Source: Bacillota bacterium
Lineage (GTDB): Bacteria; Bacillota; Clostridia; Clostridiales; Clostridiaceae
Reading direction: 5' to 3'
Assembly (NCBI GenBank): GCA_021781655.1
Contig: JAJXWJ010000008.1
Coordinates: 1-64,000 of the forward strand
DNA length: 64,000 bases
Shown here: positions 4,435-28,220 of the stretch, one piece after another
Layout of the letters: the number at the start of each line of letters is the position of its first letter
Numbering within the stretch: position 1 is the first letter of the stretch
The notes under the pieces: model-generated
Seen by the model: only the letters and a program-made list of their open reading frames with translations
Told to the model about the DNA's origin: nothing
Databases searched by the model: none
Translations under genes and position numbers: made by a program

Positions 4435-5868
4435 TTATTCAGCAATTTTTTCATCTATTAAATAGTCATTTTCATTTTCAGAATATTTAAATGCTATAAC
4501 CTGGGCAATCAAACATACTACTACCAATATCAATAAAAATATGAATCCATTGTCCGCACCAATTGCGGTTTTTATTTCATAAGAACTGCTGGATAAGCTC
4601 CCTTGTGAAGCTCCTAAAATTGCAGCAACAATAGAAGTTCCAACTGCTCCGGAAAATTGGAGCAACGTATTGAAAGCTGTATTTCCATCTGCTGATAGAT
4701 TTCTTGGAAGCTGCTTTAAACCATTGGTCATTGTGTTTCCAAAAGACCATCCACAACCTATTCCATAAATAATATAACCTACTACAATCATTGCTGATGA
4801 AAGATTTTTACCAAATATAGCTAAAAAGGCAATGCTAACAACAAATAAAATTGCACCCATTATAATTGGCTTTTTAGCGCCAAGCTTATCGTACATAAGC
4901 CCACCAACTAAAGCCATAAATGCATTTAAAAATGCACCTGGTAGCATAAGCATTCCAGCATTCATAGAATTTAATCTATTAGTTATTTGAAGATAATTCG
5001 GTAAAATAAATGCTAATCCAAGTATAGATACATTTATTATAAAAAATGCTAGTAGATGTGCACTAAATGCTCTATTTTTAAAAATTTCCATACTTACTAA
5101 TGGGTTATTTACTTTTAAACAATGTCTTATGAATAAAATCAAGCCAATAATACCTACTATAAAAAATGCTATTTCTCCTATTAAATTTGTTTTGATTGCC
5201 TCTAAATTTGAAAAGCCATATACAAGGCAAAAGAATGTAATCATCACAAGAAAAATACCTTTAGCATCTGTTGGTACCTTTTCTAAAGGTGTAACTTGTG
5301 AAATTGTTAAAAACCCTAGTAATATAACTATAATGATTATTGGTATCAAAAAAGCAAAAATTGCTCTCCAACCAAATGCTACATTGATGATGCCACCAAA
5401 GGTAGGTCCCACTGCTGGTGCCGCAGCTGTTACTAATGCACCAATCCCCATGAAAGCACCCGTTTTAGATGGTGGTATTTGAGTAAGTATAATAGAAAAG
5501 CCTACTGGTACGCAAAGTCCCATTGCAACACCTTGAATTAATCTTGCTAATAAAAGCATCGTAAAATTTGGCGATATTACTGCTAGAATTGTTCCTATTA
5601 AAAATATAATAGCTCCACATGTAAATATATTTTTTAGTTTAAATCTTTTATGAAAAAATGCTGTAAGTGGAGTTATCATAGCTACTACCAGGAGGTTTCC
5701 TGTTGTTAACCATTGAACTGTAGCTGTATCGATTTTAAATTCCTTTATCAATGTAGGAAACACAATATTTACTGCTGTTTCTGTTAAAAGTCCGCAAAAT
5801 ACAATTAGACATGCTGCAAATATAGAAATCAGTACTTTACTGCTTACTTTTTCATTTTCTTTATTCAT
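4435..5868 (-). CDS. DHA2-type MFS drug exporter
   Basis: The 477-residue protein has about 14 predicted membrane helices, the mark of the drug:H+ antiporter-2 group (EmrB/QacA/LmrB type). Visible family features are the loop after helix 2 (FFHKRFKLKNIF), helix 4 with LLLARLIQGVAMGLCVPVGFSIIL, and GWRAIFAFLIPIIII following the conserved glycine- and proline-rich APAVGPTFGG of helix 5. It should sit in the cytoplasmic membrane and expel small amphipathic compounds using the proton gradient. It ends convergently with the LysR gene. It differs from the pump at 8372-9925 in having no partner HlyD gene. Confidence 0.85.
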   Translation of the reverse strand: MNKENEKVSSKVLISIFAACLIVFCGLLTETAVNIVFPTLIKEFKIDTATVQWLTTGNLLVVAMITPLTAFFHKRFKLKNIFTCGAIIFLIGTILAVISPNFTMLLLARLIQGVAMGLCVPVGFSIILTQIPPSKTGAFMGIGALVTAAAPAVGPTFGGIINVAFGWRAIFAFLIPIIIIVILLGFLTISQVTPLEKVPTDAKGIFLVMITFFCLVYGFSNLEAIKTNLIGEIAFFIVGIIGLILFIRHCLKVNNPLVSMEIFKNRAFSAHLLAFFIINVSILGLAFILPNYLQITNRLNSMNAGMLMLPGAFLNAFMALVGGLMYDKLGAKKPIIMGAILFVVSIAFLAIFGKNLSSAMIVVGYIIYGIGCGWSFGNTMTNGLKQLPRNLSADGNTAFNTLLQFSGAVGTSIVAAILGASQGSLSSSSYEIKTAIGADNGFIFLLILVVVCLIAQVIAFKYSENENDYLIDEKIAE

Positions 5869-6014
5869 TTATTTACCTTCCTTTTGCTTAATCATAAAGT
5901 TTTATAATAATTTCTTCACTAGTGATAATTAAAACTTATAATTATATTTACAAGTTTAATTATATCATAAGCTTTTTTAAGGTATAATCGAAAAAACTTG
6001 TTACAATGATTTGT

Positions 6015-6088
6015 TTTACTTATAAATGCAAAGAAACTGTCATCAAGCCTATTTTACTTGATGACAGTTTCTTTGCATTTATTAAGTA
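6015..6088. terminator. very long perfect hairpin in the 5.87-6.16 kb gap
   Basis: The arms at 6024-6047 and 6057-6080 are perfectly complementary over 24 bp with a 9-nt loop. With one bulged base the pairing extends outward (TTTACTT/AAGTAAA). It lies between two leftward genes: the Cof phosphatase ends at 6164 and the exporter starts at 5868. It probably ends phosphatase transcription. The rest of the 295-bp gap shows only AT-rich promoter-like DNA for the exporter. Confidence 0.65.
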
Positions 6089-6163
6089 AACTTCTCTTTC
6101 TAGAAATACTTTAAGCTTAACTTATAGTTTTTCATTGAAAAAAAATCTCTTCCCTTTAAAATC

Positions 6164-7054
6164 TTATTTTTTCTTTCTTAATTTCTCTAAGTTATTATCT
6201 AGCATCTTTTCAACTGCGTATGCAAACCCTTCTTCTTTATTGCTTTTTGTAATATATTTTGAAACTTCCTTGATTTTTTCCATAGCATTTCCCATTGCAA
6301 CCGTAGCTCCAAAATCCATTTTTAGCATAGAATAGTCATTCATGCTGTCTCCAAGCACCATAACTTCCTCCATTGAAAATCCAAGTTCTTCTATATACTC
6401 CCTTAAGGCTATGCCTTTCTGTGCATTAATATGAGTAAGTTCTAAATTAGATGCAAAAGATGATGCAGATACAATCCCTTCAATATCTGAAAGTGCACTA
6501 TCCATCTCATGGATTATAGATTCATCGAAAGCAAAAATGAAAATTTTATATATTGGTATATTATTTAATTTCAATTCTTTCAAATCACTAATAACCTTAA
6601 TTCCAGATAACATATTTTGAAATCTAGGTGAAGCTTCAATCTCAGAAAGGCTTCCAATATCAAAAAAGCTACTGGCCTCTAAAAGTAAACTTTTCTTTAT
6701 TTCTTCTTCATTTCCAAGCATATAATCGTAATCATTAGAACAAAATCTCACTGCTATAGGAAACTTTTTAATCCTATCTAAAATATCTTGAAACTTAGAA
6801 GCATCCATTTCAATTTGTTTCAATATTTTAGCATCTTGATTTCTAACCTCAGCTCCACTAGACACTATATAATCACATTTTATATCATATTTTTCCAAGG
6901 TCTTCATTGCCGACAAATAATGCCTGCCAGTAGAAATCATAAATCTTATATTATTTTCGTATAATTTTTTAATTGCTACTATCGAGCGCTCTGTTATTTC
7001 ATGCTTTTCATTTAACAAAGTTCCATCCATATCAGTTACTACTACTTTTATCAT
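6164..7054 (-). CDS. Cof-type HAD hydrolase (sugar-phosphate phosphatase-like)
   Basis: The 296-residue protein carries the four HAD motifs of the Cof subfamily: VVTDMDGTLL at the N-terminus (nucleophile Asp), ISTGRHYLSA (motif II), and GDSMNDYSMLKMDFGATVAMGNA near the C-terminus (motif IV). A type IIB cap of about 100 residues lies between motifs II and III. Relatives dephosphorylate sugar phosphates or flavin/PLP-type cofactors in the cytoplasm. The substrate cannot be predicted here. It stands alone, ending before the long hairpin at 6015-6088. Confidence 0.85.
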   Translation of the reverse strand: MIKVVVTDMDGTLLNEKHEITERSIVAIKKLYENNIRFMISTGRHYLSAMKTLEKYDIKCDYIVSSGAEVRNQDAKILKQIEMDASKFQDILDRIKKFPIAVRFCSNDYDYMLGNEEEIKKSLLLEASSFFDIGSLSEIEASPRFQNMLSGIKVISDLKELKLNNIPIYKIFIFAFDESIIHEMDSALSDIEGIVSASSFASNLELTHINAQKGIALREYIEELGFSMEEVMVLGDSMNDYSMLKMDFGATVAMGNAMEKIKEVSKYITKSNKEEGFAYAVEKMLDNNLEKLRKKK

Positions 7055-7141
7055 ATTAATATTACCTCATAAATCATAAAATTATACTTTAATTATAAAT
7101 CAACAAGGTAAATTTAAAAAGTAGTATCCCTTATATTATTT

Positions 7142-8359
7142 TTATTTAACCTTTATCTTAGCTGTTACAGACATTCCTGGTATAAAATTATTTGTAGAAG
7201 AATCAAAATCTATTTTAATAGGCACACGTTGGCTTACCTTTGTATAATTTCCAGAGTTATCTGTTGTGTTAAATAGACTAAAGGTGGACGCTGTCGCTAA
7301 ACCTAGCTGACTTACTTTACCTGTAAAAGTAGTGCCTGGGAATGCATCAACACTCAAATCAACACTTTGTCCCAATTTAACCTTTTCAAGATCACCTTCC
7401 AATACGTATGCTGTAACTTGGAGCTTAGACATATCAACTAAAGAAATTGCTCCAGAGCCTGCTGCAATGGTATCACCTACATGAATATTTACTTGTGCTA
7501 CTGAACCATCCATTGGAGCTTTAACTGTTGTGTTATCTAAACCTAATTTAACCAAATCATATGCTGCTTGTGCTTCCTTAACTTGATCTTCTGCAATAGC
7601 TATATCCTTATTTGATGCACCTGCATTTGTAAGTTTAAGTTGACTATTTGCTCCATTTATACTAGCCTGTGCTGCATTTATTTGTGCATTTGATGCGTTT
7701 ATTTGTCCCTGTAACTGTTGAATTTGGTTTTCAAGCTGTTGTTTTGCCGAAAACATTTGCTCTATAGCTTGTGCTTTAACAGTATATTGTCCATCAGAAA
7801 TCTGTCCAGCTGCCTTAGCTGCATCTAACTGACCTAAAGCATAACTAGCATCATACTGTCCTGTTTTTGGATTTTTTGTACTATCCATTTGAGATAGTAA
7901 AGTATTGTATTGAGACTGTAAACTATTTAAAGTATTTTGTAAATTTGTTTTTGTAGTATTAGCTCCATTCAAACCTGCTGTTGCAGCATCTACTGCTGCT
8001 TGCGCTGCTGATATTTGCTCACTTCTTGCTCCTCCCTCAACTTTATCAAGGGAAGCTTTAGCAACATCAAGAGCAGCTTGTGCTTGATTTAATTGTGCTT
8101 GTGCTTGATCAGTTTCAAGAGTGAAAAGTACGTCACCTTTTTTAACCTTATCTCCTTCTTTAACCATAACTTGTGCAACTCTTCCTGGCACTAAGGAACT
8201 AGCACTTATTATATCTCCAGTTACATTGGCATCATCCGTTGATACGTATGTAATACTATTATAATACATGTACCCTCCAACCGCTGCAAATACTACTAAT
8301 ATAACCGCTATTACTGATATAAAAATCTTTTTACTTGATTTCTTATTTCCTTTTTCCAT
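7142..8359 (-). CDS. HlyD/EmrA-type efflux adaptor subunit
   Basis: The 405-residue protein begins with one membrane anchor (about residues 12-32), followed by YVSTDDANVTGDIISASSLVPG, the typical EmrA opening. A split lipoyl domain is visible as VMVKEGDKVKKGDVLFTLE and later VKAPMDGSVAQVNIHVGDTIAAG. They bracket a long alanine- and glutamine-rich coiled-coil hairpin (about residues 80-270) and are followed by a beta-barrel domain. It lies 12 bp downstream of the EmrB-like pump and should work with it, outside the cytoplasmic membrane. The adaptor in a Gram-positive cell is expected to reach the wall rather than an outer membrane. Confidence 0.88.
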   Translation of the reverse strand: MEKGNKKSSKKIFISVIAVILVVFAAVGGYMYYNSITYVSTDDANVTGDIISASSLVPGRVAQVMVKEGDKVKKGDVLFTLETDQAQAQLNQAQAALDVAKASLDKVEGGARSEQISAAQAAVDAATAGLNGANTTKTNLQNTLNSLQSQYNTLLSQMDSTKNPKTGQYDASYALGQLDAAKAAGQISDGQYTVKAQAIEQMFSAKQQLENQIQQLQGQINASNAQINAAQASINGANSQLKLTNAGASNKDIAIAEDQVKEAQAAYDLVKLGLDNTTVKAPMDGSVAQVNIHVGDTIAAGSGAISLVDMSKLQVTAYVLEGDLEKVKLGQSVDLSVDAFPGTTFTGKVSQLGLATASTFSLFNTTDNSGNYTKVSQRVPIKIDFDSSTNNFIPGMSVTAKIKVK

Positions 8360-8371
8360 TAGTTTTCCTCC

Positions 8372-9925
8372 TTATTCTCCGATAAAATTTTCTGATTTTT
8401 CTCCTTCAGGTGCAGCTGCTTTCTTTATAAAGAAGGCTACTGGAATACCAAACAGGCATATAAATGACGAAACTAAAAGGGCATCATTTATACCACCAAC
8501 TGCAGCCATTTTCACAAGCTGAGTATATATTTGCATAAATATTCCACTTTTCACTGCTGACAAACTCATTCCGTTTTTTATAGCTAATGCTGCAAAGTTA
8601 TTTTGTGCTGCTACAACTGTTGGGGAAGTCAAATTTACTGCCTCACTTAATCTTTCTGTATGGAACACTTCTCTATTTTGAAAAATTGTAGTTAAAACAG
8701 CAATACCTAAGGAAGCACTTACCTGTCTGAGAGTGTTATTAAGTGCAGTAGCTCTTCCAGATTGATCTCTTGGAATTGAATTCATCCCATTAGTTTGCAC
8801 AGGCATCATTGACATACCCATTCCTAGTCCTCTAACCATCATTATTAAAAGTATTACTGTATATGAGGTTTCTAGAGTTAGTTTACTTAACATAAAAGAT
8901 GCTCCAGACAAAATTGCTAGTCCTATAATTGTAAGCCACTTAGCTCCAAATTTATCAAATAATTTACCACTTATAGGCATCATTATTCCTGTTACTATAG
9001 CCATTGGCAGTGATAACAGTCCAGATTCCATAGGTGTATATCCTCTTATATTCTGCATATATATTGGTATTAAAAATAAGGCTCCATACATTCCTATTGT
9101 TGTTATTGTAGAAACTACAAGACTTATTGAAAACGAGCCATTTTTTAAAACTCTCAAATCTAGAAGTGGCTGTTCATAGGTTAACTCTTGGTATATAAAA
9201 CAAACTATAGATAAAATTGAAATTGCAAATAGAACAATCTCATATGTTGATGTCCATCCTTTTGAATTACCTTGATCTAGTGCTAACAATAAAGTGAATA
9301 ATCCAATTGCACTTGTTATAGCTCCTATGAAATCGAATTTTTTATTCTCATGGATTTCAGTTTCCTTTAACAGAAGTATAGCCAATGTAGTTCCAATTAT
9401 TCCCACAGGAACATTTATAGTAAATATTAATCTCCAATCTAAATATTGTACAATATAACCGCTTAACGTAGGTCCAATTGCTGGTGCTGCCATAGCAGAT
9501 ATTCCCCATACACCGAGAGCAACTCCTCTTTTTTCTATAGGTACAATCATGAAAATCATCGCCATACCAACAGGCATTATCATTCCACCGCCAATGGCTT
9601 GTACTACTCTAGCTGCAATCATAGTTTGAGTACTTACAGAGAGACCACAAAGTGCAGATCCTGCAGTAAAAATTATTAATGACATAATATAAAGCCTTTT
9701 TATTCCAAAACGGTCTCCTAGATATCCTGTAAGAGGAATAACAATACTCATAGTAAGCATATATCCCGTTACTACCCATTCGATTTGATCTGTAGATGCA
9801 CCAAATACTGTCATCATTTTGGGGATTGCAACATTTACTATACTAGAATCTAGTATGGACATAAATGTTCCAACAATAACAACACTAAGTGCCATCCACA
9901 TATATCTTTCTTCATGCTTATCCAT
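8372..9925 (-). CDS. EmrB/QacA-type MFS drug exporter
   Basis: The 517-residue DHA2 transporter has about 14 membrane helices. Motif C is present (GISAMAAPAIGPTLSGYIV), as are the helix-1 LDSSIVNVAIP and helix-4 VVQAIGGGMIMPVGMAMI of this family. I place the start at the second ATG (9925), eight bases after AAAGGA; the first ATG touches the ribosome site. The HlyD adaptor follows 12 bp later and a TetR gene precedes it, so this is a regulated tripartite-style export operon. A palindrome matching the TetR gene's own operator lies upstream at 9969-9988. The exported compound is unknown. Confidence 0.88.
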   Translation of the reverse strand: MDKHEERYMWMALSVVIVGTFMSILDSSIVNVAIPKMMTVFGASTDQIEWVVTGYMLTMSIVIPLTGYLGDRFGIKRLYIMSLIIFTAGSALCGLSVSTQTMIAARVVQAIGGGMIMPVGMAMIFMIVPIEKRGVALGVWGISAMAAPAIGPTLSGYIVQYLDWRLIFTINVPVGIIGTTLAILLLKETEIHENKKFDFIGAITSAIGLFTLLLALDQGNSKGWTSTYEIVLFAISILSIVCFIYQELTYEQPLLDLRVLKNGSFSISLVVSTITTIGMYGALFLIPIYMQNIRGYTPMESGLLSLPMAIVTGIMMPISGKLFDKFGAKWLTIIGLAILSGASFMLSKLTLETSYTVILLIMMVRGLGMGMSMMPVQTNGMNSIPRDQSGRATALNNTLRQVSASLGIAVLTTIFQNREVFHTERLSEAVNLTSPTVVAAQNNFAALAIKNGMSLSAVKSGIFMQIYTQLVKMAAVGGINDALLVSSFICLFGIPVAFFIKKAAAPEGEKSENFIGE

Positions 9926-9968
9926 TTCACACATCCTTTCTAATTGTTTTTTAGGAAATATAATGATT

Positions 9969-9988
9969 TTAACTAACTATTTAGTTAA
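9969..9988. promoter_or_regulatory. putative TetR operator for the pump operon
   Basis: An inverted repeat TTAACTAA-(4 bp)-TTAGTTAA lies about 44 bp upstream of the pump start. It repeats the half-site and the 4-bp spacing of the palindrome upstream of the TetR gene at 10650-10675, so both are likely sites for the same repressor. Confidence 0.6.
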
Positions 9989-10022
9989 TAAAATGGTGCA
10001 GTGGTCATAATTACATTTTTAA

Positions 10023-10637
10023 TTATTTTTTTAATGAATTAAAAAAGCCAACTTGATGCTTAATAAAAGTTTTTATAAATACATCTTTTGCTTTTTCTTT
10101 GTCTACTCCTACAATATCAAACCAATCATCTGCAAAAGTTGAATATCCTAGCAACGGAATTGTAATATAGAAAAACCTATTAATAAGTATTTGAATAGTT
10201 TCTTCTTCTGTTAAGTCTCTCTTCTTTAATTCTTCTTTTCTGCTTTGAAATATTGGCAATACAGTAGATAATAATGAACTTTCCTTAAAGCCTGATTTCA
10301 TGTAGTCCATAAAAATAATTCTTATAAGATCTTTTTTATCCTCTAAAAACTTTTCTATTTTTCCAAAATATTTTTGGACTTCATCTATTTTTTCCCAATT
10401 AATTTCATTTTTTATTTCTGCCTTAAATTCATCGCAATCTTTAAGATAAATTTTTATTATTTCAGCAAATAAATTTTCTTTACTATCGTAATAATAATAT
10501 ATCATAGCCTTGTTTACCTTTGCTTTTGCAGCAATTTCATCAACTCTAGCTCCACCAAAACCTTTTTCTGAAAAGATTTCTATTGCAGCATCAGTAATTT
10601 TTTGCTTTGTTATATATGCCTTATCTTTTTCAGTCAT
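10023..10637 (-). CDS. TetR-family repressor of the adjacent efflux operon
   Basis: The 204-residue protein has the N-terminal TetR helix-turn-helix (KQKITDAAIEIFSEKGFGGARVDEIAAKAKVNKAMIYYYYDSKENLF), followed by an all-helical ligand-binding domain. It is immediately upstream of, and in line with, the EmrB/EmrA genes. Matching inverted repeats sit before its own start and before the pump start. The obvious inference is autorepression and repression of the pump, relieved by a pump substrate. The ligand is not predictable. Confidence 0.88.
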   Translation of the reverse strand: MTEKDKAYITKQKITDAAIEIFSEKGFGGARVDEIAAKAKVNKAMIYYYYDSKENLFAEIIKIYLKDCDEFKAEIKNEINWEKIDEVQKYFGKIEKFLEDKKDLIRIIFMDYMKSGFKESSLLSTVLPIFQSRKEELKKRDLTEEETIQILINRFFYITIPLLGYSTFADDWFDIVGVDKEKAKDVFIKTFIKHQVGFFNSLKK

Positions 10638-10801: not shown

Positions 10802-11704
10802 TTGCTGGAAATGCTTAAAAACTGCAAACTTTGTCCTAGAAATTGTAATGTAAATAGATTAAAAGGCCAGCTTGGTTTCTGTAAATCTAGTCATAACATT
10901 AGTTTAGCTAAGGTTTCTCTCCACCAATGGGAAGAACCTTGTATTTCTGGTGCAAATGGTTCTGGTACAGTGTTTTTTTCAAACTGCAATTTAAATTGTG
11001 TATTTTGCCAAAACTACAAAATAAGTCAAGAACATTTCGGAATAGAAATAACTATAGAAAGACTTGCTGAAATTTTTATAGAACAGGAAAAAAGAGGGGC
11101 TCATAACATCAACTTAGTTAATCCTACTCACTACGTACCACAAATTATTGAAGCCATTAAAATTTCACGAAATTGTGGTCTTACTATTCCTATTTTATAT
11201 AATAGCAATGCTTATGAAAATGTAGATACTATAAAAGCTTTAAACGGCTATATAGATATATACCTTCCAGACTTTAAATACTTTAATGACAAATATGCTG
11301 TAACCTATTCCAACGCTAAAAACTATTTTGAAGTAGCTAAAAATTCAATTTCTGAAATGGTAAAACAGTGTCCAGAGACAATTATGAGTGACGATAGTCT
11401 TATTTTAAAAGGAGTAATTATTCGTCATTTAATGCTGCCTGGATTACTTTTTGATTCTAAGAAAATAGTAGATTATATATTTAGAAGCTTCGGTGACTCC
11501 GTTTATTTAAGCCTAATGAATCAATACACTCCATTCTATGATTGTGCTAAATATCCAGAAATAAACAAACCTATTAATTCTAAACATTATGATAGTTTAA
11601 TTGCTTATTGCTTAAATTTGGGTGTAAAAAAAGGATTTATTCAAGAAGAAGGAACGGTTAAGGAAAGTTTTATTCCCGATTTCAATTTGGATGGCATAAA
11701 TTAG
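10802..11704 (+). CDS. radical SAM protein, PflA-like (COG1313 type)
   Basis: From a TTG start at 10802, eight bases after AGGAGG (10788-10793), the protein is 300 residues. The nearby GTG at 10793 overlaps the ribosome site and is unlikely. The radical SAM motif CNLNCVFC gives Cys62, Cys66 and Cys69 for the SAM-binding 4Fe-4S cluster. An N-terminal cysteine set (Cys8, Cys11, Cys15, Cys27) may hold a second cluster. The protein resembles a widespread group annotated as putative pyruvate formate-lyase activating enzymes, but no glycyl radical enzyme is nearby and its substrate is unknown. The stop codon abuts the palindrome at 11704. Confidence 0.8.
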   Translation: MLEMLKNCKLCPRNCNVNRLKGQLGFCKSSHNISLAKVSLHQWEEPCISGANGSGTVFFSNCNLNCVFCQNYKISQEHFGIEITIERLAEIFIEQEKRGAHNINLVNPTHYVPQIIEAIKISRNCGLTIPILYNSNAYENVDTIKALNGYIDIYLPDFKYFNDKYAVTYSNAKNYFEVAKNSISEMVKQCPETIMSDDSLILKGVIIRHLMLPGLLFDSKKIVDYIFRSFGDSVYLSLMNQYTPFYDCAKYPEINKPINSKHYDSLIAYCLNLGVKKGFIQEEGTVKESFIPDFNLDGIN

Positions 11705-11762
11705 GTGCCTGACCCCAAAGTACCTGACCCCTTAGGGGTCAGGTACTTTGGGGTCAGGCACC
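11704..11762. repeat. REP-like 59-bp perfect palindrome
   Basis: The arms at 11704-11731 and 11735-11762 are perfectly complementary over 28 bp with a TTA loop. Each arm holds two copies of a CCTGACCCC motif. It is GC-rich in an AT-rich window and sits exactly between convergent genes, starting inside the stop codon of the radical SAM gene. It resembles REP/BIME-type mobile palindromes and could also end transcription from both sides. No REP-associated transposase is in the window. Confidence 0.75.
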
Positions 11763-11767
11763 AACTA

Positions 11768-13570
11768 TTATATTTTGTATTTTTTCAAATCATTTCTGAA
11801 GCCTTCTGATAATATCTTAAATTGATCAATATTTTCTGTTAGGCTCTTTATTTCATTTGTATAAGTTATTACACTTGCGCTTACTTCTTGTGAAGATGCA
11901 GAATTTTCTTCTGCTATTGCCGCTAATGATTCTATATTTTCATATACTCCAACCATAGCTTCTGCCTGTTTCTCTAGTTTTTCTATAGTTTTAATCATTG
12001 CTGCTGATACTGAAACAGCTGATTCTTTAGCTTCATAGCTAACATTTCTAACATCATTTAAGCTGCCAATTTCACCTTGTAAAACTGAATACTGAACTTC
12101 TATCTTGTCCACTAAAAGATCAATATCATTTACGAAAAGTTTTAAATTGTTATTAATTTCTTCTACAGCTGATTGAGTTTGTTCTGCTAATTGCCTTACT
12201 TCTTCCGCAACTACGCTAAAGCCTTTTCCAGCTTCACCAGCACGAGCTGCTTCGATAGATGCATTTAATGCAAGTAAATTTGTCTGTTCTGAAATCGCTG
12301 ATACAATGGAAACTATATTTGTAATATCTTTTGCTTTATTACCAAGATCCATGCCTTTATCTTTAACTTCTTGGAATTTTTCCAAGCTATTTAATATATT
12401 TTTTCCTGTTGTTTCTACACTTTCATAACTTTTTTTGATTTTATCTATAGATTGCTCTAATTGTTCTTTATTTTCATTTTCTCTATCAACTACAGCTTTC
12501 AAATCATCTACATTACTATTTAATACAGCTGAAGCTTCTTGAGTGTTTGTAGCTTGGTCAACAGATGTACCTGCTAATTGTTCCATTACTTGCGATATTT
12601 CAACTGAAGTATTACTCATTGTTTCTGATATTTCTGCTACCTTTCCAAGGAAAGTGTTCATTTCATCAGTAACACCTTTAAATCCAACAAAATCTGCAGA
12701 AACAACTTTTTTCTGTTCAATCAAGTCGTTGAAAATATCTTCAAAAAAGTCTCCAGTGTCTATACTGCTATTTATTACATAATTAGTTTGCTTCATTGAA
12801 GCTATTTCCTCACGAATAAATTTTTTTGGACTTAATAAAGCTTCAGTTAAAACAGCTGATATTACACTAGGAATTGCTGCTGCTATAAGTTCCTTTACTA
12901 TTTGTGAAGTTCCACCAAATAGTGGAATAAACACCACTAAGGATATAATGAAAGTTACAATTGAAGCTTTAATCCCTATACTTTTTATAAACCCAAAAGA
13001 TAATAATTTATTTAAAAAATATTTCTTTTTATAATAAATATCCTTTTCAAACTTAAGCTTTAAAGTTACTGAGTTATCTGTTCGTTTTAACTCTTCAATG
13101 TCAACTTTTTCTTTGAAAAACTCTGCTCCACCTTTTAATAATCCAAATAGATAACCAAACATACCTCTGTTTGAATGATAAGTAAATATAGCTTCCCTAT
13201 TTGAAATAGGTTCTATCTTTACAAGTGGTGGATTCGCACCTTTAAATTTTTTTGTCATTACAACATGAATATCAAAAAGAGACCTTAAGAAGGAATAAAA
13301 ATTTTCATGATCAAAAAAAGCTTGAAAATCATGATAAAAAGATAAAATATTATCTTTACCTATTATTTCCCAAAGTTCAACTGTATCCATTTTTAGTTCA
13401 TTTGACATAAACTTAACGAATTCTTTTACATCTTCATCTTTTACATCTTCTAACGGCGTAAAAATTTTGCTTTTGCTAAAGCCCACATGTTCTAGAGCCC
13501 CATTTACAAGTTCATCTCCATATAGCTTTCTGCAAGTTTTTACCCAAGTTCCAACTACTGTTCCTTTCAA
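11768..13570 (-). CDS. H-NOX (heme gas sensor) methyl-accepting chemotaxis protein
   Basis: I place the start at TTG 13570, eight bases after GGGGG, giving 600 residues beginning [18 protein letters not shown]. Residues 1-185 are an H-NOX heme domain with proximal His102, Pro115 and the YxSxR heme-propionate motif (Tyr131, Ser133, Arg135). Two membrane helices lie at about 203-250. The rest is an MCP signalling domain ([20 protein letters not shown] in the hairpin tip region). This is the Tar4H/SONO architecture of anaerobic Firmicutes, sensing O2 or NO and signalling to CheA. Trp9, Asn74 and Tyr140, the distal O2-binding trio known from the Caldanaerobacter H-NOX, are all present. It is convergent with the radical SAM gene. 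Confidence 0.93.
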
Positions 13571-13658
13571 GACTTGCACCCCCGAATCGATAAATTAATT
13601 TATATTATTTTTTACTAAATATAATGCTTTCTTATATATCACTTTACAGTATACTTTA

Positions 13659-21018: not shown

Positions 21019-22164
21019 ATGTGTGGTATTTCTGGTTTGGTTAACTTTAAAGATAACCTTTTATACAAAAAATATATTATCGAAAAGATGACAAATACGC
21101 TAAAAAAAAGAGGTCCTGATGATGAAGGCTATTATTTTTCAAAGCATACTCTTTTAGGACATAGAAGGCTAGTTGTTGTAGACCCTACTGGCGGAGGTCA
21201 GCCGATGATTAAAAATGTGGCTGGTAATAAGTTTGTTATTGTTTATAATGGCGAATTATATAATACAGACGAACTTAAGGCTACTTTAATAAATGAAGGC
21301 TATGAATTTGAATCTTACTCTGATACAGAGGTACTTTTAACCTCTTATATACACTGGGGATATAAATGCACAATGCATATAAATGGTATTTATGCTTTTT
21401 GCATTTGGGATGAAAATAACAAAAATTTATTTTTAGCTCGTGATCCACTTGGCGTCAAACCATTATTTTATAGTATAATTGGTGACAATTTTATTTTTGG
21501 CTCAGAAATCAAAACTATTTTAGCCCATCCATCAGTAAAACCTATTATTACAGAAGAAGGGCTAACTGAAATATTTGGTCTTGGACCTGCACGTGCACTA
21601 GGTAGCGGAATATTTAAAAATATAAAAGAACTCCCACCTGCACACTTAGGTATATTAACTCCATATAGCTTTTCCTTGCAGGAATTTTGGAAGCTTAAAG
21701 CTAAAGAACATACAGAAACCTTAGATGAAACTGCAGAGCATTTAAAAAGTTTATTAACTGATGCAGTTAAAAGACAGCTTGTAGCCGATGTACCCTTATG
21801 CACTTTCCTTTCTGGTGGTTTGGATTCTAGTGCAATTTCTGCTATAGCAGCTACTGAATTTAAAAATAAAGGTGAAATTTTAGACACTTATTCAATAGAT
21901 TATGTGGATAACGACAAATACTTTACTGAAAGCGTTTTTCAACCAAATTCGGATAGTAAGTGGGTCAAAAAAATGCAAGCCTTCATTAATAGCAATCACA
22001 TAAACGTTGTTAATGATAACGTTACTTTGGCAACATCATTAGTCGATGCAGTAATAGCAAATGACTTACCTGGTATGGCAGATATAGATTCTTCACTATT
22101 TTTATTTTGTAAAGAAGTGCGTAAAAATCATACTGTTGCACTCTCTGGTGAGTGTGCATATTAG
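21019..22164 (+). CDS. asnB: asparagine synthetase, 5' part, interrupted by a serine-recombinase element
   Basis: The 381-residue product has the full class II glutamine amidotransferase domain, with the catalytic Cys after the initiator Met (MCGISGLVNF), and the start of the synthetase domain with the ATP pyrophosphatase loop (FLSGGLDSSAISAI). It ends in LSGECAY and a TAG supplied by the inserted element. Intact enzymes continue ECADEIFGGYPWF, exactly what lies at 27498 beyond the element. Joining codon 373 to 27498 gives one 613-residue protein, about the length of B. subtilis AsnO. The stop lies 5 bp from the convergent recombinase stop. As it stands the product should not make asparagine. 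Confidence 0.93.
   Translation: MCGISGLVNFKDNLLYKKYIIEKMTNTLKKRGPDDEGYYFSKHTLLGHRRLVVVDPTGGGQPMIKNVAGNKFVIVYNGELYNTDELKATLINEGYEFESYSDTEVLLTSYIHWGYKCTMHINGIYAFCIWDENNKNLFLARDPLGVKPLFYSIIGDNFIFGSEIKTILAHPSVKPIITEEGLTEIFGLGPARALGSGIFKNIKELPPAHLGILTPYSFSLQEFWKLKAKEHTETLDETAEHLKSLLTDAVKRQLVADVPLCTFLSGGLDSSAISAIAATEFKNKGEILDTYSIDYVDNDKYFTESVFQPNSDSKWVKKMQAFINSNHINVVNDNVTLATSLVDAVIANDLPGMADIDSSLFLFCKEVRKNHTVALSGECAY
22137..22157. repeat. left attachment site (attL core)
   Basis: This 21-bp core is identical to 27497-27517; its last 20 bases are GCACTCTCTGGTGAGTGTGC. It lies in the codons for the conserved SGECA motif. The core is itself a partial dyad centred on GG at 22147-22148, a plausible crossover dinucleotide. 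To its right, 22149-22169 is one arm of the reconstructed attP. Confidence 0.9.
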
Positions 22165-22169
22165 TTGAT

Positions 22170-23756
22170 TCAATAATCTAAAGTCAGACTCTCAATATTT
22201 ACTTTTAGAATAAACTCTAAAGTGTTATCATGATATACTAGTATTTTATCTAAAATACGCTCTAAATCACCTCTATTTGGTGCCTCCAAACTAATAATTC
22301 TATCAAATATTTCTATATTACTTTTAATCCTGTTATCTATGTTATTGATTTTCTTTAGTTCTTCTATATTCCTTTTTAAACTTGAAATCTTTTTTGCCTT
22401 TTCCAAAATCATATTTTCATAGGTGCTCTCTATTATTTCTTTTTCACCATCACCTTTTACTTTTTCTATATCTTTTATTTTCTGAATAAAAGATAGCTTT
22501 AACTGTTCTTCTTCAATTTTTAGTCTTGCTTCAAAATTACCTAAACTATTTCTAATCCTTTTTTTCTTTTTTTCTATTTTAATATTATTTATGCAATCTT
22601 CGTATTTATCTCTGATTTCTTTTAAAAACTCTTTCAAATAAAATACAATCTGAGCTTCTTCTATTGTATGATTTGAGCAACTTTTTTTGCCATATTTAAT
22701 ATAATTTGTGCAATTATACGCATTTATATTGTTTATCCTTCTTCTAATTTGTATTCCAGATAAACATTTTCCACAATCACCGCACCTTATAAATCCTGTA
22801 AAGTAATAATTATATTTAGCCATTGATTCTCTACATGATTTATCTGCTCTTTTCGCATTAATTTCTTGTGCTAATTTAAAGTCTTCTTTTGAAATTATTG
22901 CTTCATGATTATTGGGAAACTTCAACTGCTTACACTTTTCAATGTTTTTTTGTTTACCTTTAATTCCTTCTGCTTGCCTTTTTCTTGTAGTCAATGTCCC
23001 AATATATATATCATCAGAAATAATTCTATATATCATATGTGTTTGCCATTTAGTTGATGATTTATTTTTAAATACCCTGCCGTTATTCATATGCCTTTGC
23101 CTTATATGCTCACTAGGCGTCGGATAATACTTTAAATCAAGAATATCACAAATTCTTTTATAACCCATTCCTTTTAAATATGATTCAAATATCAATTCAA
23201 TTACAGGTCTTATATCTTCATCAACAACAAGTTGAAATTTTGATTTTTCTCCCTCTAAAACTTTAATTTTATTATAACCATAATGATTACCCATAATAAG
23301 CTTTCCTAATTCCTGTTGCATATGCATATTTGCTCTAATCTTTCTAGATATATCTTTAACATAAAAATCGTTATACCATGTTTTAATACCTAAAAAATTA
23401 TCATCATCGCTTGAAACGTCTAGACCACCACTTTTTTCTGTAATTAATATTAATCTTATCCCTGCCTCTTTTATTTCATCAAATAAAACTAATACCTGTC
23501 CATTTTTTCTACCTAACCTTGAAGCATCTTTTGCAAGTATCACATTTATATTCCTATTTTTAACCTCATTAAGCATCTCTTTTAAAGCTGGTCTATCAAA
23601 AGTATATCCGCTATAATTATCATCTATATACATTTTAGATACAATAAAACTATTTTCTTTTGCAAATTTCTTTATAATATCTTGCTGTGTTATTATCGTT
23701 TCTCCATTCTCTCCATCTTCATTTCTTGAAACTCTCACATATCCAACTACATTCAA
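22170..23756 (-). CDS. large serine recombinase (integrase/excisionase of the element)
   Basis: The 528-residue protein has three parts. The resolvase domain (about 1-150) starts NVVGYVRVSRNEDGENGETI, with the nucleophile Ser in RVS, and has AKDASRLGRKNGQVL. A recombinase domain spans about 165-275 (LIMGNHYGYNKIKV). A zinc ribbon (GFIRCGDCGKCLSG, then CTNYIKYGKKSCSNH) is followed by a lysine- and glutamate-rich coiled coil (about 385-465), which controls directionality in this family. It resembles the TndX/TnpX and skin-type enzymes of clostridia. Its stop codon begins at 22172, three bases from the attP arm, the usual placement for such integrases. Confidence 0.93.
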   Translation of the reverse strand: MNVVGYVRVSRNEDGENGETIITQQDIIKKFAKENSFIVSKMYIDDNYSGYTFDRPALKEMLNEVKNRNINVILAKDASRLGRKNGQVLVLFDEIKEAGIRLILITEKSGGLDVSSDDDNFLGIKTWYNDFYVKDISRKIRANMHMQQELGKLIMGNHYGYNKIKVLEGEKSKFQLVVDEDIRPVIELIFESYLKGMGYKRICDILDLKYYPTPSEHIRQRHMNNGRVFKNKSSTKWQTHMIYRIISDDIYIGTLTTRKRQAEGIKGKQKNIEKCKQLKFPNNHEAIISKEDFKLAQEINAKRADKSCRESMAKYNYYFTGFIRCGDCGKCLSGIQIRRRINNINAYNCTNYIKYGKKSCSNHTIEEAQIVFYLKEFLKEIRDKYEDCINNIKIEKKKKRIRNSLGNFEARLKIEEEQLKLSFIQKIKDIEKVKGDGEKEIIESTYENMILEKAKKISSLKRNIEELKKINNIDNRIKSNIEIFDRIISLEAPNRGDLERILDKILVYHDNTLEFILKVNIESLTLDY

Positions 23757-23786
23757 ATTATCCCATCCTACAAAATTTATGGTGAA

Positions 23787-23981
23787 TTACTTTCTACTTT
23801 CTATAATATTAGTTAATGCTGTTTTTATGCTATTTTTGCCTCCTACAAATATTGCAGTATATTTATATTTTTTCTTTAAGTCAATAATTTTTTCTTTAAT
23901 TGTAATATCCAATAGTTCTTCATTGGCAATATAAATCATTGCCAATTTTGAGTTGCAATAAAAAACTTCTACAACTCTCAT
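23787..23981 (-). CDS. small protein upstream of the recombinase, candidate directionality factor
   Basis: From ATG 23981, six bases after GAGGTG, the product is 64 residues, beginning MRVVEVFYCNSKLAMIY and ending in a lysine-rich half. I do not recognise a family. It lies 30 bp upstream of the recombinase on the same strand, so the two are probably one operon. Large serine recombinases integrate alone but need a small partner protein to excise. Position and size make this the only candidate in the element. The upstream GTG at 23990 overlaps the ribosome site and is less likely. Confidence 0.6.
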   Translation of the reverse strand: MRVVEVFYCNSKLAMIYIANEELLDITIKEKIIDLKKKYKYTAIFVGGKNSIKTALTNIIESRK

Positions 23982-24016
23982 ATATAACACCTCAATATGT
24001 TAAGTGAACTTAAAAT

Positions 24017-24044
24017 AATATATGTTTTAACTTCAAAATTATTC
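24017..24044 (-). promoter_or_regulatory. candidate mother-cell (sigma-E-like) promoter for the recombinase operon
   Basis: On the minus strand GAATAAT (24044-24038) and CATATATT (24024-24017) are 13 bp apart. This approximates the sigma-E pattern KMATATT, 14 bp, CATACAnT, with one mismatch in each box and one base short. The -10 octamer is the same as the one before the split synthetase gene. In such AT-rich DNA this is weak evidence. Confidence 0.25.
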
Positions 24045-24053
24045 TAATTATTG

Positions 24054-24110
24054 TATAAATAAAAACCTTTTGAGTATGATATGAAAATACTCAAAAGGTT
24101 TTTATTTATA
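24054..24110. terminator. 24-bp perfect hairpin inside the element
   Basis: The arms at 24054-24077 and 24087-24110 pair perfectly around a 9-nt loop, with A-rich and T-rich outer ends. The hairpin separates the cargo genes (transporter stop at 24147) from the recombinase operon, so read-through from cargo into the recombinase should be low. Confidence 0.75.
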
Positions 24111-24146
24111 TTAATGAAAATTTAAAATAGTTTCAATATACATATT

Positions 24147-25490
24147 TTAATTATTACTAACCGCATTTCTTTTATTTAAATCTTCTTGTATTTTGCTTAA
24201 ATTCTTATCTAAATTATATCCCATCATTATAATTAGTCCTATTACACATACAATTATAGGTATCCATATAAAGTTTATTTGAATAGCAAATAAAGCTTTT
24301 GAAGTTTGTTTTACCTTTGGTATATAACCACCCCATGCTAAAAGGAAACTAGAAACTGCACCAGCAACACCCATAGCTAACTTTGCTGCAAAACTTGATA
24401 TTGAAGATAAAATACCTTGTGCTCTTACGCCTGATTTCCATTCGCCATAATCCACTGTATCTGGTAACATTGAAAATCTAGCTCCACTTGTAAGTCCTGA
24501 ACCGATTCCTGAAACTACAAGTCCTAATATTATTACGGGTACTGAAGTTATACCTAAAAACATTACCAAGGAGCCAACTATTGTAAGCACATAACCAGCC
24601 CTCAAAGAATTTGCTTTCCCAACTTTTTGAGCTACAACGGGAAGAACGATAGTACCAGGTATAGATGAAAATGTACTTATAGTTGCAATTAATGCGATTA
24701 ATGCTGGTTTACTAACATTGTAAGTGAAGAAATATACAATACAGCTTGATCTTATTAACATTCCTAAATATATAAAGAATGTATTTATCATTATTATTAT
24801 CCATGGAGTATTACCTTTTATTGCTTTTAGAGATTCACTAAAGGGAATCTTTGGATTTTTACTTTTAATTTTTTCTTCTGTTCCTTTAAATGTAAGCATA
24901 AAGAAACCAACCGCTAAAACTGCAAAAATTATAATTGTATATAAAAAACCTTTCTTTTGATTTCCTCCACCTAGTTGCTGAATCATAGGCATTGCCATTG
25001 CACTTACAATAGTTGAGCCTATAAGTGAAAGTATCATTCTAACAGTAACATACATAGTTCTCTCTTGTGGATCATCAGTTAAACTTGGTAACATTGCTGT
25101 TATCGGTATATTTATAACATCATAAACAACACATAATAATATGTATGTAACGTATGCATAAATAAGCTTCCCAGTTGGGGCTAAATTAGGCACATTAAAT
25201 GCTAAAACTGCTATAACACCTAATGGTATGGATACAAATAAAAAGTAAGGCCTGCATTTTCCCCATTTGGTATCTGTTTTATCTATCATAATTCCTATAA
25301 ATATATCTGCTATTGCATCAACAACCCTTGATAATAATAGCATAGATCCTACTGCTACTGCTGTTATTCCAAATACATCCGTATAAAAATACATCATATA
25401 AAGAGACATCATTTGGAAAACCAAATTTGATGCCAAATCTCCGCAGCCATACGCAATTTTACTCTTCAATGAAGATACATCGTTTTTCAT
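24147..25490 (-). CDS. GPH-family sugar:cation symporter (element cargo)
   Basis: The 447-residue protein has about 12 membrane helices and the glycoside-pentoside-hexuronide symporter pattern: IAYGCGDLASNLVFQMMSLYMMYFYTDVFG at the N-terminus, the DAIADIFIGIMIDKTDTKWGKCRPYFLF loop, and MLPDTVDYGEWKSGVRAQGI in the second half. Such carriers bring glycosides or oligosaccharides across the cytoplasmic membrane with Na+ or H+. It is 25 bp downstream of the esterase and likely forms an operon with it. It is related to, but distinct from, the GPH symporter at 44268-45665. The substrate is not predictable; xylosides or acetylated oligosaccharides would fit the partner esterase. Confidence 0.88.
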   Translation of the reverse strand: MKNDVSSLKSKIAYGCGDLASNLVFQMMSLYMMYFYTDVFGITAVAVGSMLLLSRVVDAIADIFIGIMIDKTDTKWGKCRPYFLFVSIPLGVIAVLAFNVPNLAPTGKLIYAYVTYILLCVVYDVINIPITAMLPSLTDDPQERTMYVTVRMILSLIGSTIVSAMAMPMIQQLGGGNQKKGFLYTIIIFAVLAVGFFMLTFKGTEEKIKSKNPKIPFSESLKAIKGNTPWIIIMINTFFIYLGMLIRSSCIVYFFTYNVSKPALIALIATISTFSSIPGTIVLPVVAQKVGKANSLRAGYVLTIVGSLVMFLGITSVPVIILGLVVSGIGSGLTSGARFSMLPDTVDYGEWKSGVRAQGILSSISSFAAKLAMGVAGAVSSFLLAWGGYIPKVKQTSKALFAIQINFIWIPIIVCVIGLIIMMGYNLDKNLSKIQEDLNKRNAVSNN

Positions 25491-25515
25491 AATATAATTC
25501 CCTCCAAAATTTTAC

Positions 25516-26301
25516 TTAAAGCATTTCCAAAAACCATTTTAAACACTTTTGTATAGCTTCATCCCAATATTCCCAGGAATGAATTCCTTTGCTTTCATCA
25601 TATGTGATATCAAATCCTTTTTTTATCAATATGTCTTTAAATTCTACGTTCATATTGTAAAAGAAATCTTCCCTTCCACAGCTAATATATATTCTAGGTG
25701 CATTATTTTGTGGATCTTCAAAGTTATTTGCCAAATTTACTAAATCATTTTCACTTCCTAAAACCTTTTCATAATCTCCAAAAATATCATTAAAAATAAT
25801 TCTTCTCCCGTCTCTAATTTGTTCTGGTAAAGCATTCAGTGCTTTTTCAATTTCAACTGCTCCTGAAAAACTTGCCACTGCTTTAAACTTTTCAGGCTTT
25901 TTTAAAGCTAATTTTATGCTCCCATATCCACCCATAGATAGCCCTGCAACAAAATTTTCTTCTCTTTTACTAGAAATGGAAAAAAATTCTGTTACTACTC
26001 TCGGCAATTCTTCACTTATAAAAGTCCAGTACCTTTTCCCATGGGCCATATCCGTATAATAGCTTAAGTCTCCACTGGGCATTACGACAGCTATTCCCTT
26101 ATCTTCAACATATCTTTCTATTGCTGTTTTTCTTGTCCACGCTGTATTGTCATCACTAAAACCGTGTAATAAATATAAAACTGGATATCTGCCTTTATTT
26201 TCACTTCTATCTTTCAGTTTATTTTTTTCAGGTAAAATTACCTTTACAGTTGTGTTCATTCCCAAAACTTCTGAAAAAAAATTACAATCTATTAATGCCA
26301 T
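25516..26301 (-). CDS. alpha/beta-hydrolase esterase (element cargo)
   Basis: The 261-residue cytosolic protein has an esterase D / tributyrin esterase-like fold. The nucleophile elbow is GLSMGGYGS near residue 122. The triad is completed by a probable Asp in CGREDFFYNMN and a His in GIHSWEYWDE at the C-terminus. The oxyanion region YPVLYLLHGFSDDNTAW is present. Relatives remove acetyl or feruloyl groups from sugars or hydrolyse short esters. With the adjacent sugar symporter, deacylation of an imported oligosaccharide is a reasonable inference. A perfect palindrome lies 30 bp upstream of its start. Confidence 0.85.
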   Translation of the reverse strand: MALIDCNFFSEVLGMNTTVKVILPEKNKLKDRSENKGRYPVLYLLHGFSDDNTAWTRKTAIERYVEDKGIAVVMPSGDLSYYTDMAHGKRYWTFISEELPRVVTEFFSISSKREENFVAGLSMGGYGSIKLALKKPEKFKAVASFSGAVEIEKALNALPEQIRDGRRIIFNDIFGDYEKVLGSENDLVNLANNFEDPQNNAPRIYISCGREDFFYNMNVEFKDILIKKGFDITYDESKGIHSWEYWDEAIQKCLKWFLEML

Positions 26302-26330
26302 TAAAGCCCCTCCATTTTAATAATTATTTT

Positions 26331-26348
26331 ATTTAAAACGTTTTAAAT
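26331..26348. promoter_or_regulatory. perfect 18-bp palindrome upstream of the esterase-transporter operon
   Basis: ATTTAAAACGTTTTAAAT is a perfect dyad with a central CG, the style of LacI/GalR-type operators. It lies 30 bp upstream of the esterase start, probably just downstream of its promoter. No LacI-family gene is in the window, so the binder may be encoded elsewhere. Confidence 0.45.
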
Positions 26349-26440
26349 ATTTAATTTAGCTTTATGTATACATTTTACTTACTATATAACTTTATATCCA
26401 ATACATATATTTATATATAATCTATATAGTTTTTTGCATA

Positions 26441-26484
26441 AATAAAAAAGCAGTAAATTCAAATTAATTTACTGCTTTTTTATT
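26441..26484. terminator. terminator after the element's LysR gene
   Basis: The arms at 26441-26459 and 26466-26484 pair perfectly over 19 bp with a 6-nt loop and A/T-rich ends. The stem starts right at the stop codon of the leftward LysR gene. The remaining gap to the esterase holds AT-rich promoter DNA and the palindrome at 26331. Confidence 0.75.
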
Positions 26485-27375
26485 TTAAATCTTTTCTGCA
26501 TTATCTTGTAAATTTTTAAAATAACTCATTGCAAAATTTCTAAATAATATTGATGCTTTAGATAAGTATCTTTTTTCATTCCATTCTATATAAATTGTTC
26601 TATTGCACACTGGTTCCTCAATATGTAAGAACACTATAGAAGAACCTACTGAACTTCCCCAAGATATTTGTGGTATAAATGCCACTCCTTGTCCTGCTTT
26701 TATAAGTTGTCTAACCGTTGCAGGATCATCGCTTTCAAAAATAATTTTAGGTTTAAATCCAGCTTTTTTACAGTAGTCATCTGTTATTTTGCGAAGTGGT
26801 TTCCCCTCTTTAAGACTTATAAAATTTTCGTTTTCTACTTCTTTAAGGCTAACACTTTTTCTATTGGAAAGCGGGTGATTTAACGGAACTGCAAAATATA
26901 CTTCTTCATTTAATAACACCATACTGTTTTCACTTTGCTTTTCAAAATGCGAGGCGGATATACATAGATCAAAATCTGAATTGCCAACCTCACTTGGAAA
27001 ATGCTGAAACAATTGAAATCTTATATTCGGATGTAACTTGCAAAAATCACTTAAAAGATCTGGTATTATGGTAGATGCAGCGAGAAAAATTAGTTGTATT
27101 TCTCCAAACTCTTTCCCCTGCAAATCTGTAATCTCCCTTTTACCATCTTCAAGTGCATTTAATGCAATATCAACCTTTGCAAGAAATAGTTTCCCATATT
27201 CATTTAACTTTATATACTTTCCATTCCTATCAAATAAATTAATGCCTAATTCCTTTTCAAGCTGAGAAATATTTTTGCTAAGAGCTGGTTGAGCTATGTA
27301 AAGTTCATTTGCTGCCTTTGTAACATTTTCAAGTCGTGCCACCGTTTTAAAATATTTAAGCTGCAATAAATCCAA
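26485..27375 (-). CDS. LysR-family regulator (element cargo)
   Basis: The 296-residue protein has the LysR winged helix (LLQLKYFKTVARLENVTKAANELYIAQPALSKNISQLEKEL) and an effector domain with the GQGVAFIPQ motif near residue 220. It is the gene nearest the right attachment site. A plausible promoter lies at about 27430-27460 (minus strand TTGACT, 16 bp, TATATC). It precedes the esterase and transporter on the same strand and probably regulates them. It is unlike the LysR at 3498 beyond the family level. Confidence 0.87.
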   Translation of the reverse strand: MDLLQLKYFKTVARLENVTKAANELYIAQPALSKNISQLEKELGINLFDRNGKYIKLNEYGKLFLAKVDIALNALEDGKREITDLQGKEFGEIQLIFLAASTIIPDLLSDFCKLHPNIRFQLFQHFPSEVGNSDFDLCISASHFEKQSENSMVLLNEEVYFAVPLNHPLSNRKSVSLKEVENENFISLKEGKPLRKITDDYCKKAGFKPKIIFESDDPATVRQLIKAGQGVAFIPQISWGSSVGSSIVFLHIEEPVCNRTIYIEWNEKRYLSKASILFRNFAMSYFKNLQDNAEKI

Positions 27376-27496
27376 ACATCATCATCCCCTTAAAATCTTT
27401 TGTGAATAAACAAATATGGTTTGCTTCTCTTAATGATATAATACCTGTACTACAAAAGTCAAAATAATTAATTTCACATAATAATATCAACTAATA

Positions 27497-27517
27497 TGCA
27501 CTCTCTGGTGAGTGTGC
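27497..27517. repeat. right attachment site (attR core)
   Basis: This is the second copy of the 21-bp core at 22137-22157. To its left, 27486-27506 is the other arm of the reconstructed attP. To its right the reading continues as the intact synthetase motif ECADEIFGG. The central GG is at 27507-27508. Confidence 0.9.
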
Positions 27518-28220
27518 TGATGAAATATTTGGTGGCTATCCTTGGTTTACAAGAGAGGAGGATTTAAATTCAGATACTTTTCCTTGGTCAAAATCAGTAA
27601 GTGATAGGAAAAGTATACTAAGTAATGACCTCAAAAGATTGCGCTTAGAAGAGTTGGTAAAGGAAAATTATGATGCTACTTTAAAAAATGTTCCTAATTT
27701 AGAAGTGGAATCAAAATATACAAAAAGAATTAGAGAACTTGTATACTTAAATATAAAATGGTTTATGGTTACACTTCTAACTAGGAAGGATAGGATGAGT
27801 ATGAGCAATAGCCTAGAGGTCAGAGTTCCCTTTGCCGATTACAGAGTTGTAGAATACGCCTATAATATTCCACCAGAAATGCGCTTTGCAGATGGACGAG
27901 AAAAAGGCATATTAAGACGGGCGCTTAAAGGAATACTGCCAGAAGAAATATTGCTAAGAAAAAAGAGCCCTTATCCTAAAACTCATAATCCAAAATACAC
28001 TGAAGTTGTTCAAAAATGGATGTTCAACATTTTAAGCGATAAAACTTCTCCTATTTTAGACCTTATAGATATTAATGAAGTAACTAAAATCGTTTCATCT
28101 GGCGGAAGTTATTATACTAAACCTTGGTTTGGACAACTAATGACAGGTCCGCAGCTCATGGCTTATTTAATACAAATTGATGCATGGCTTAGACTTTATA
28201 AAGTTCAAATAGAAATTTAA
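27498..28220 (+). CDS. asnB: asparagine synthetase, 3' part, cut off from its start
   Basis: The frame opens at the right attachment site as ALSGECADEIFGGYPWFTREED and runs 240 residues to the stop at 28220. It is the C-terminal part of the synthetase domain: SNSLEVRVPFADYRVVEYAYNIP is conserved in AsnB-type enzymes, as is the ILLRKKSPYPKTHNP segment. It has no ribosome site or plausible start at the junction; an in-frame TTG at 27639 is not convincing. It becomes translatable only when joined to 21019-22137. No frameshift or stop has built up, which suggests that the joined gene is still under selection. The cotJ genes follow. Confidence 0.92.
   Translation, partial: ALSGECADEIFGGYPWFTREEDLNSDTFPWSKSVSDRKSILSNDLKRLRLEELVKENYDATLKNVPNLEVESKYTKRIRELVYLNIKWFMVTLLTRKDRMSMSNSLEVRVPFADYRVVEYAYNIPPEMRFADGREKGILRRALKGILPEEILLRKKSPYPKTHNPKYTEVVQKWMFNILSDKTSPILDLIDINEVTKIVSSGGSYYTKPWFGQLMTGPQLMAYLIQIDAWLRLYKVQIEI

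What the first reader, a model, noticed from the sequence alone, without database searches (positions are those of the whole stretch)
11768..13570. H-NOX chemoreceptor predicted to bind O2, with the complete distal trio
Counting from the TTG start, His102, Pro115, Tyr131, Ser133 and Arg135 fall at the same numbers as in the Caldanaerobacter H-NOX. Trp9, Asn74 and Tyr140, which hydrogen-bond O2 in that protein, are also all present. NO-selective H-NOX proteins lack this network. An anaerobe would then use this receptor for oxygen avoidance, not only NO sensing. The numbering match also supports the TTG start.
Basis: partly seen in the sequence, partly recalled or inferred. Interest (0 to 1): 0.6.

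Follow-up and report, generated by a model that had tools for sequence, protein, structure and literature searches.

The report
Ordinary clostridial H-NOX gas-sensing chemoreceptor
A Clostridium-family bacterium carries a standard membrane chemoreceptor with a heme sensor of the type that can bind oxygen; this is the normal form of the protein in its family, and the idea that it warns anaerobes of oxygen is already published but unproven.

Summary
The residue observation is correct. The minus-strand gene 13570-11768 starts at TTG (GGGGGTG six bases upstream) and encodes 600 aa: an H-NOX domain, two hydrophobic segments and an MCP signalling domain. H102, P115, Y131/S133/R135, W9, N74 and Y140 all match the Caldanaerobacter (Cs/Tt) H-NOX number for number.

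The trio is not special to this gene. It occurs in 49 of 51 sampled Clostridiaceae H-NOX proteins, in all 80 loci of a second survey (one truncated before Y140), and in all 27 intact MCP fusions sampled across the phylum. Nine stand-alone H-NOX proteins of the same phylum lack it. That Tyr-bearing, O2-binding, MCP-fused H-NOX proteins mark obligate anaerobes is already in the literature.

The interpretation goes too far on two points. Trp9 and Asn74 bond Tyr140, not O2. C. botulinum H-NOX shares the residues nearest the ligand yet binds O2 about 1000-fold more weakly than Cs (reported KD 53 µM against 44 nM), so the trio does not predict a tight O2 complex. O2 binding is likely; O2 avoidance is plausible but unshown. 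The genome has no ferrochelatase, so the heme is probably scavenged.

Verdict: new member of a known kind, low interest.

The parts
11768..13570 (-). H-NOX-MCP chemoreceptor gene, 600 aa, TTG start
   Evidence: ORF and residue numbering; HNOB and MCPsignal over Pfam cut-offs
13577..13583 (-). probable ribosome-binding site GGGGGTG, 6 bases before the TTG
   Evidence: read from sequence
13094..13567 (-). H-NOX heme domain
   Evidence: PF07700 150.4 bits; AlphaFold model mean pLDDT 91.9; Foldseek TM 0.94 to 1u4h
13544..13546 (-). Trp9 codon (distal trio)
13349..13351 (-). Asn74 codon (distal trio)
13265..13267 (-). His102 codon, proximal heme ligand
   Evidence: role from established knowledge of Cs H-NOX
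13151..13153 (-). Tyr140 codon, distal hydrogen-bond donor
   Evidence: role from PMC12329717
12833..12973 (-). two hydrophobic segments, residues 200-218 and 228-246: probable transmembrane hairpin
   Evidence: Kyte-Doolittle peaks 2.37 and 2.04
12101..12436 (-). MCP signalling domain, residues 379-490
   Evidence: PF00015 101.9 bits
13659..14342 (-). HTH plus S24 (LexA-like) regulator gene just upstream, same strand; conserved neighbour, not shown to be part of the sensor
   Evidence: Pfam; within 300 bp upstream on the same strand in 20 of 80 loci

Best explanation
This is the Clostridiaceae orthologue of the MCP-fused H-NOX gas sensors. Heme is held by His102 and by the Y-x-S-x-R motif. 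On the distal side Tyr140, oriented by Trp9 and Asn74, can donate a hydrogen bond to bound O2; NO and CO should also bind. Ligand binding would change heme and domain shape, and the signal would pass through a membrane hairpin to the MCP tip and on to CheA and the flagella. Shown here: sequence, fold, architecture, conservation, and the presence of CheA and flagellin genes. Inferred: heme and O2 binding, and coupling to CheA. Unproven: that O2 rather than NO is the natural signal. O2 affinity may well be micromolar, as in C. botulinum H-NOX, rather than nanomolar as in Cs, so that it would report substantial oxygen exposure.
For: Residue match. Pfam architecture. AlphaFold/Foldseek match to O2-complexed 1u4h, TMq 0.94, 34% identity. 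Trio present in 49 of 51 family proteins, in all 80 loci of the second survey apart from one truncated before 140, and in 27 of 27 intact phylum MCP fusions, against 0 of 9 stand-alone H-NOX. Tree with MCP fusions and stand-alone proteins split by a 100/99 branch and the query among Clostridiaceae. Two CheA and three flagellin matches, no COX1-type oxidase. Literature on the class.
Against: No biochemistry. The same closest residues give a thousandfold range of O2 affinity in two characterised relatives (PMC7356049). The C. botulinum relative was first described as a femtomolar NO sensor (title cited in PMC9814294). No ferrochelatase in the genome and no AhbD-type match (best 118 bits), so heme loading in the cell is uncertain. 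The C. botulinum sequence was not retrieved under its name, so this gene was not compared with it directly.
Confidence: 0.75

Rival explanations
1. Its natural signal is NO, sensed at very low concentration, and O2 binding is a weak by-product of the distal tyrosine.
For: C. botulinum H-NOX was published as a femtomolar NO sensor (title in reference list); its reported O2 KD is 53 uM.
Against: The trio is conserved in every intact heme-type MCP fusion read and absent in stand-alone H-NOX, which suggests selection on the O2-contacting pocket; PMC8738867 and PMC12329717 favour O2.
Confidence: 0.3
2. Oxygen avoidance with a tight, Cs-like O2 complex.
For: Identical signature and trio.
Against: The same closest residues in C. 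botulinum H-NOX do not give tight binding; position 5 is Val here where Cs has Ile, and other pocket-shaping residues may differ.
Confidence: 0.2
3. In the cell the domain is often heme-free, or loaded only when outside heme is available, so it reports heme supply or redox state as well as gas.
For: No ferrochelatase in 206 of 206 Clostridiaceae genomes while 124 carry H-NOX; this genome has no AhbD-like hit above 118 bits.
Against: The heme-ligand set is conserved in nearly all, so heme binding is under selection; uptake genes were not examined.
Confidence: 0.15

Closest known systems
Caldanaerobacter subterraneus (Thermoanaerobacter tengcongensis) H-NOX-MCP, PDB 1u4h
   Same: Domain order, fold (TMq 0.94), His102, Pro115, YxSxR, Trp9, Asn74, Tyr140 at identical numbers
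   Different: 34% identity in the domain; separate branch of the tree; Val5 instead of Ile5; O2 affinity unknown
Clostridium botulinum H-NOX (SONO)
   Same: Same class, from a Clostridium; PMC7356049 says its residues nearest the ligand equal those of Cs
   Different: Sequence not recovered by name here; its O2 affinity is reported about 1000-fold weaker than that of Cs
Clostridium acidisoli and C. hydrogenum H-NOX-MCP (L052, L054)
   Same: Nearest named relatives (65% and 63% identity in the domain), full trio
   Different: No functional data known to me
NO-selective H-NOX (Nostoc, Shewanella, sGC beta1)
   Same: Fold (TMq about 0.72-0.86)
   Different: 16-20% identity; published as lacking the distal Tyr

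Membership tests
H-NOX (PF07700) | HNOB profile match above curated cut-off | tested here: met
   145.9 bits against a cut-off of 25.5
H-NOX (PF07700) | Proximal His102, Pro115 and YxSxR heme motif | tested here: met
H-NOX (PF07700) | H-NOX fold | tested here: met
   pLDDT 91.9, TMq 0.94 to 1u4h
H-NOX (PF07700) | Binds ferrous heme | not testable with these tools
   needs purified protein
O2-binding, MCP-fused H-NOX of obligate anaerobes | Fusion to an MCP signalling domain | tested here: met
   PF00015 101.9 bits; two hydrophobic segments
O2-binding, MCP-fused H-NOX of obligate anaerobes | Distal Tyr140 with Trp9 and Asn74 | tested here: met
   27/27 MCP fusions against 0/9 stand-alone
O2-binding, MCP-fused H-NOX of obligate anaerobes | Host is an anaerobe with chemotaxis | tested here: inconclusive
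   Clostridiaceae relatives; CheA and flagellin present, no COX1-type oxidase: consistent, but strict anaerobiosis is inferred, not tested
O2-binding, MCP-fused H-NOX of obligate anaerobes | Forms a Fe(II)-O2 complex | not testable with these tools
   needs spectroscopy

The most novel reading that the evidence does not exclude
Because no genome of the family has a recognisable ferrochelatase, these receptors may depend on scavenged heme, so that the response to O2 or NO is gated by outside heme.
Probability: 0.2. Interest if true: 0.45.

Novelty: new member of a known kind. Interest (0 to 1): 0.2.

Why it matters
The gene is one more example of a receptor whose heme domain is found in 124 of 206 Clostridiaceae genomes. 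It matters mainly as a reminder that the distal trio marks the MCP-fused class but does not predict O2 affinity. The side result, heme-dependent receptors in a family without ferrochelatase, raises a question that can be tested directly.

Tried and rejected
Genus-level survey: no other held genome in the genus. The first DNA-reference alignment failed because those loci are not all match-forward; proteins were extracted by script instead. The text of Wu et al. 2015 is not held, so its KD values are taken from PMC7356049. No held paper joins H-NOX, Clostridium, chemotaxis and aerotaxis. The plasmid search found one relative only (Acetoanaerobium noterae). One family search used a wrong accession (PsbM instead of a heme-uptake domain) and says nothing. 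Rejected: that the GTG at 13579 is the start; that the trio is a special feature of this gene; that the trio alone implies a stable O2 complex.

Full report
What is there. The gene runs on the minus strand from TTG at 13570 to the stop at 11768 and encodes 600 aa. GGGGGTG lies six bases before the TTG. The alternative GTG at 13579 sits inside that site, and relatives begin at the same residue as the TTG, mostly with ATG, so the TTG start is well supported. Pfam finds HNOB at residues 2-159 and MCPsignal at 379-490. Hydrophobic segments at 200-218 and 228-246 look like a membrane hairpin. An AlphaFold model of the domain (mean pLDDT 91.9) matches 1u4h, the O2 complex, with TMq 0.94 and 34% identity.

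Is it special? No. HNOB matches occur in 124 of 206 Clostridiaceae genomes. I read 50 other family proteins: 30 of the strongest matches and 20 chosen mostly among the weakest. With the window protein, 49 of 51 keep W9, N74, H102, P115, Y131, S133, R135 and Y140. In 80 loci from another collection, mostly of named organisms and overlapping the first set in part, every one has W9, N74 and H102, and all that reach residue 140 have Tyr. Across 398 phylum genomes, 27 of 27 intact MCP fusions carry the trio, while nine stand-alone H-NOX proteins have L/I/F, W/F and I/L/F at positions 9, 74 and 140 (position 9 not covered in one), mostly with H102, P115 and YxSxR kept. On a maximum-likelihood tree the two kinds are separated by one branch with 100/99 support. 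The association of trio and MCP fusion therefore reflects one deep split, not many independent events.

What the literature says. PMC12329717 and PMC8738867 already state that H-NOX from strict or obligate anaerobes have the distal Tyr, bind O2, are fused to MCPs and probably mediate chemotaxis to O2. PMC9814294 adds that this function is not yet demonstrated. PMC7356049 reports that C. botulinum and Caldanaerobacter H-NOX have the same residues closest to the ligand but O2 KD values of 5.3e-5 M and 4.4e-8 M, and describes Trp9 and Asn74 as hydrogen-bonding Tyr140.

Genome setting. The genome has two CheA matches, three flagellin matches and no COX1-type oxidase, consistent with a motile anaerobe. 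The nearest named relatives are Clostridium hydrogenum and C. acidisoli. An S24-type regulator gene lies just upstream on the same strand, as in 20 of 80 loci within 300 bp. A convergent radical-SAM gene lies downstream, as in 24 of 80. These look like an old chromosomal neighbourhood; no functional link is shown.

Heme supply. No ferrochelatase (PF00762) was found in this genome or in any of the 206 family genomes, although the same search rings in 8 of 14 control genomes. For AhbD, the last enzyme of the siroheme route, no family genome reaches the curated cut-off; some have strong sub-threshold matches (about 318-384 bits), but this genome's best is 118 bits. Heme is therefore probably scavenged. 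The genome is 97.7% complete, so a missed gene is possible for it, less so for the whole family.

Verdict. Observation confirmed; interpretation partly supported; an ordinary member of a known class. I put 0.75 on a functional H-NOX chemoreceptor able to bind O2 in vitro, and 0.2 on tight Cs-like binding with O2 avoidance.

Noticed in passing
window 21019-28220: An asparagine-synthase-like gene is split by a 5,360-base element that carries a large serine-recombinase-type ORF (22170-23756, -), a transporter-like, an esterase-like and a LysR-like ORF. 21-bp direct repeats TGCACTCTCTGGTGAGTGTGC at 22137 and 27497 flank it; joining at the repeats gives one 613-aa open frame. It could be an excisable element; ORF names are by eye.
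   Followed up: partly
L032, L033 (G167, G168): Full-length H-NOX-MCP relatives from one genus have lost the heme set (His102 to Leu, Pro115 to Gly, Tyr131 to Phe, Arg135 to Ile, Tyr140 to Leu) and also the usual MCP tip sequence (EAARAGE to KAARSGE or KATRVGE); apparently heme-free receptors kept open in two species.
   Followed up: partly
G000-G205, family-wide: No ferrochelatase in 206 Clostridiaceae genomes although 124 encode H-NOX.
   Followed up: partly
window 11704-11762: Inverted repeat GGTGCCTGACCCC...GGGGTCAGGCACC between the convergent radical-SAM gene and the H-NOX gene. The 12-mer occurs 20 times in the genome, mostly as inverted pairs, with none for the reversed control: a REP-like element, possibly a terminator.
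   Followed up: partly
window 4435-10637: Two MFS transporter-like genes, one beside an HlyD-like membrane-fusion ORF (7142-8359) and a TetR regulator: an EmrAB-like efflux set (HlyD and the first MFS by eye).
   Followed up: no
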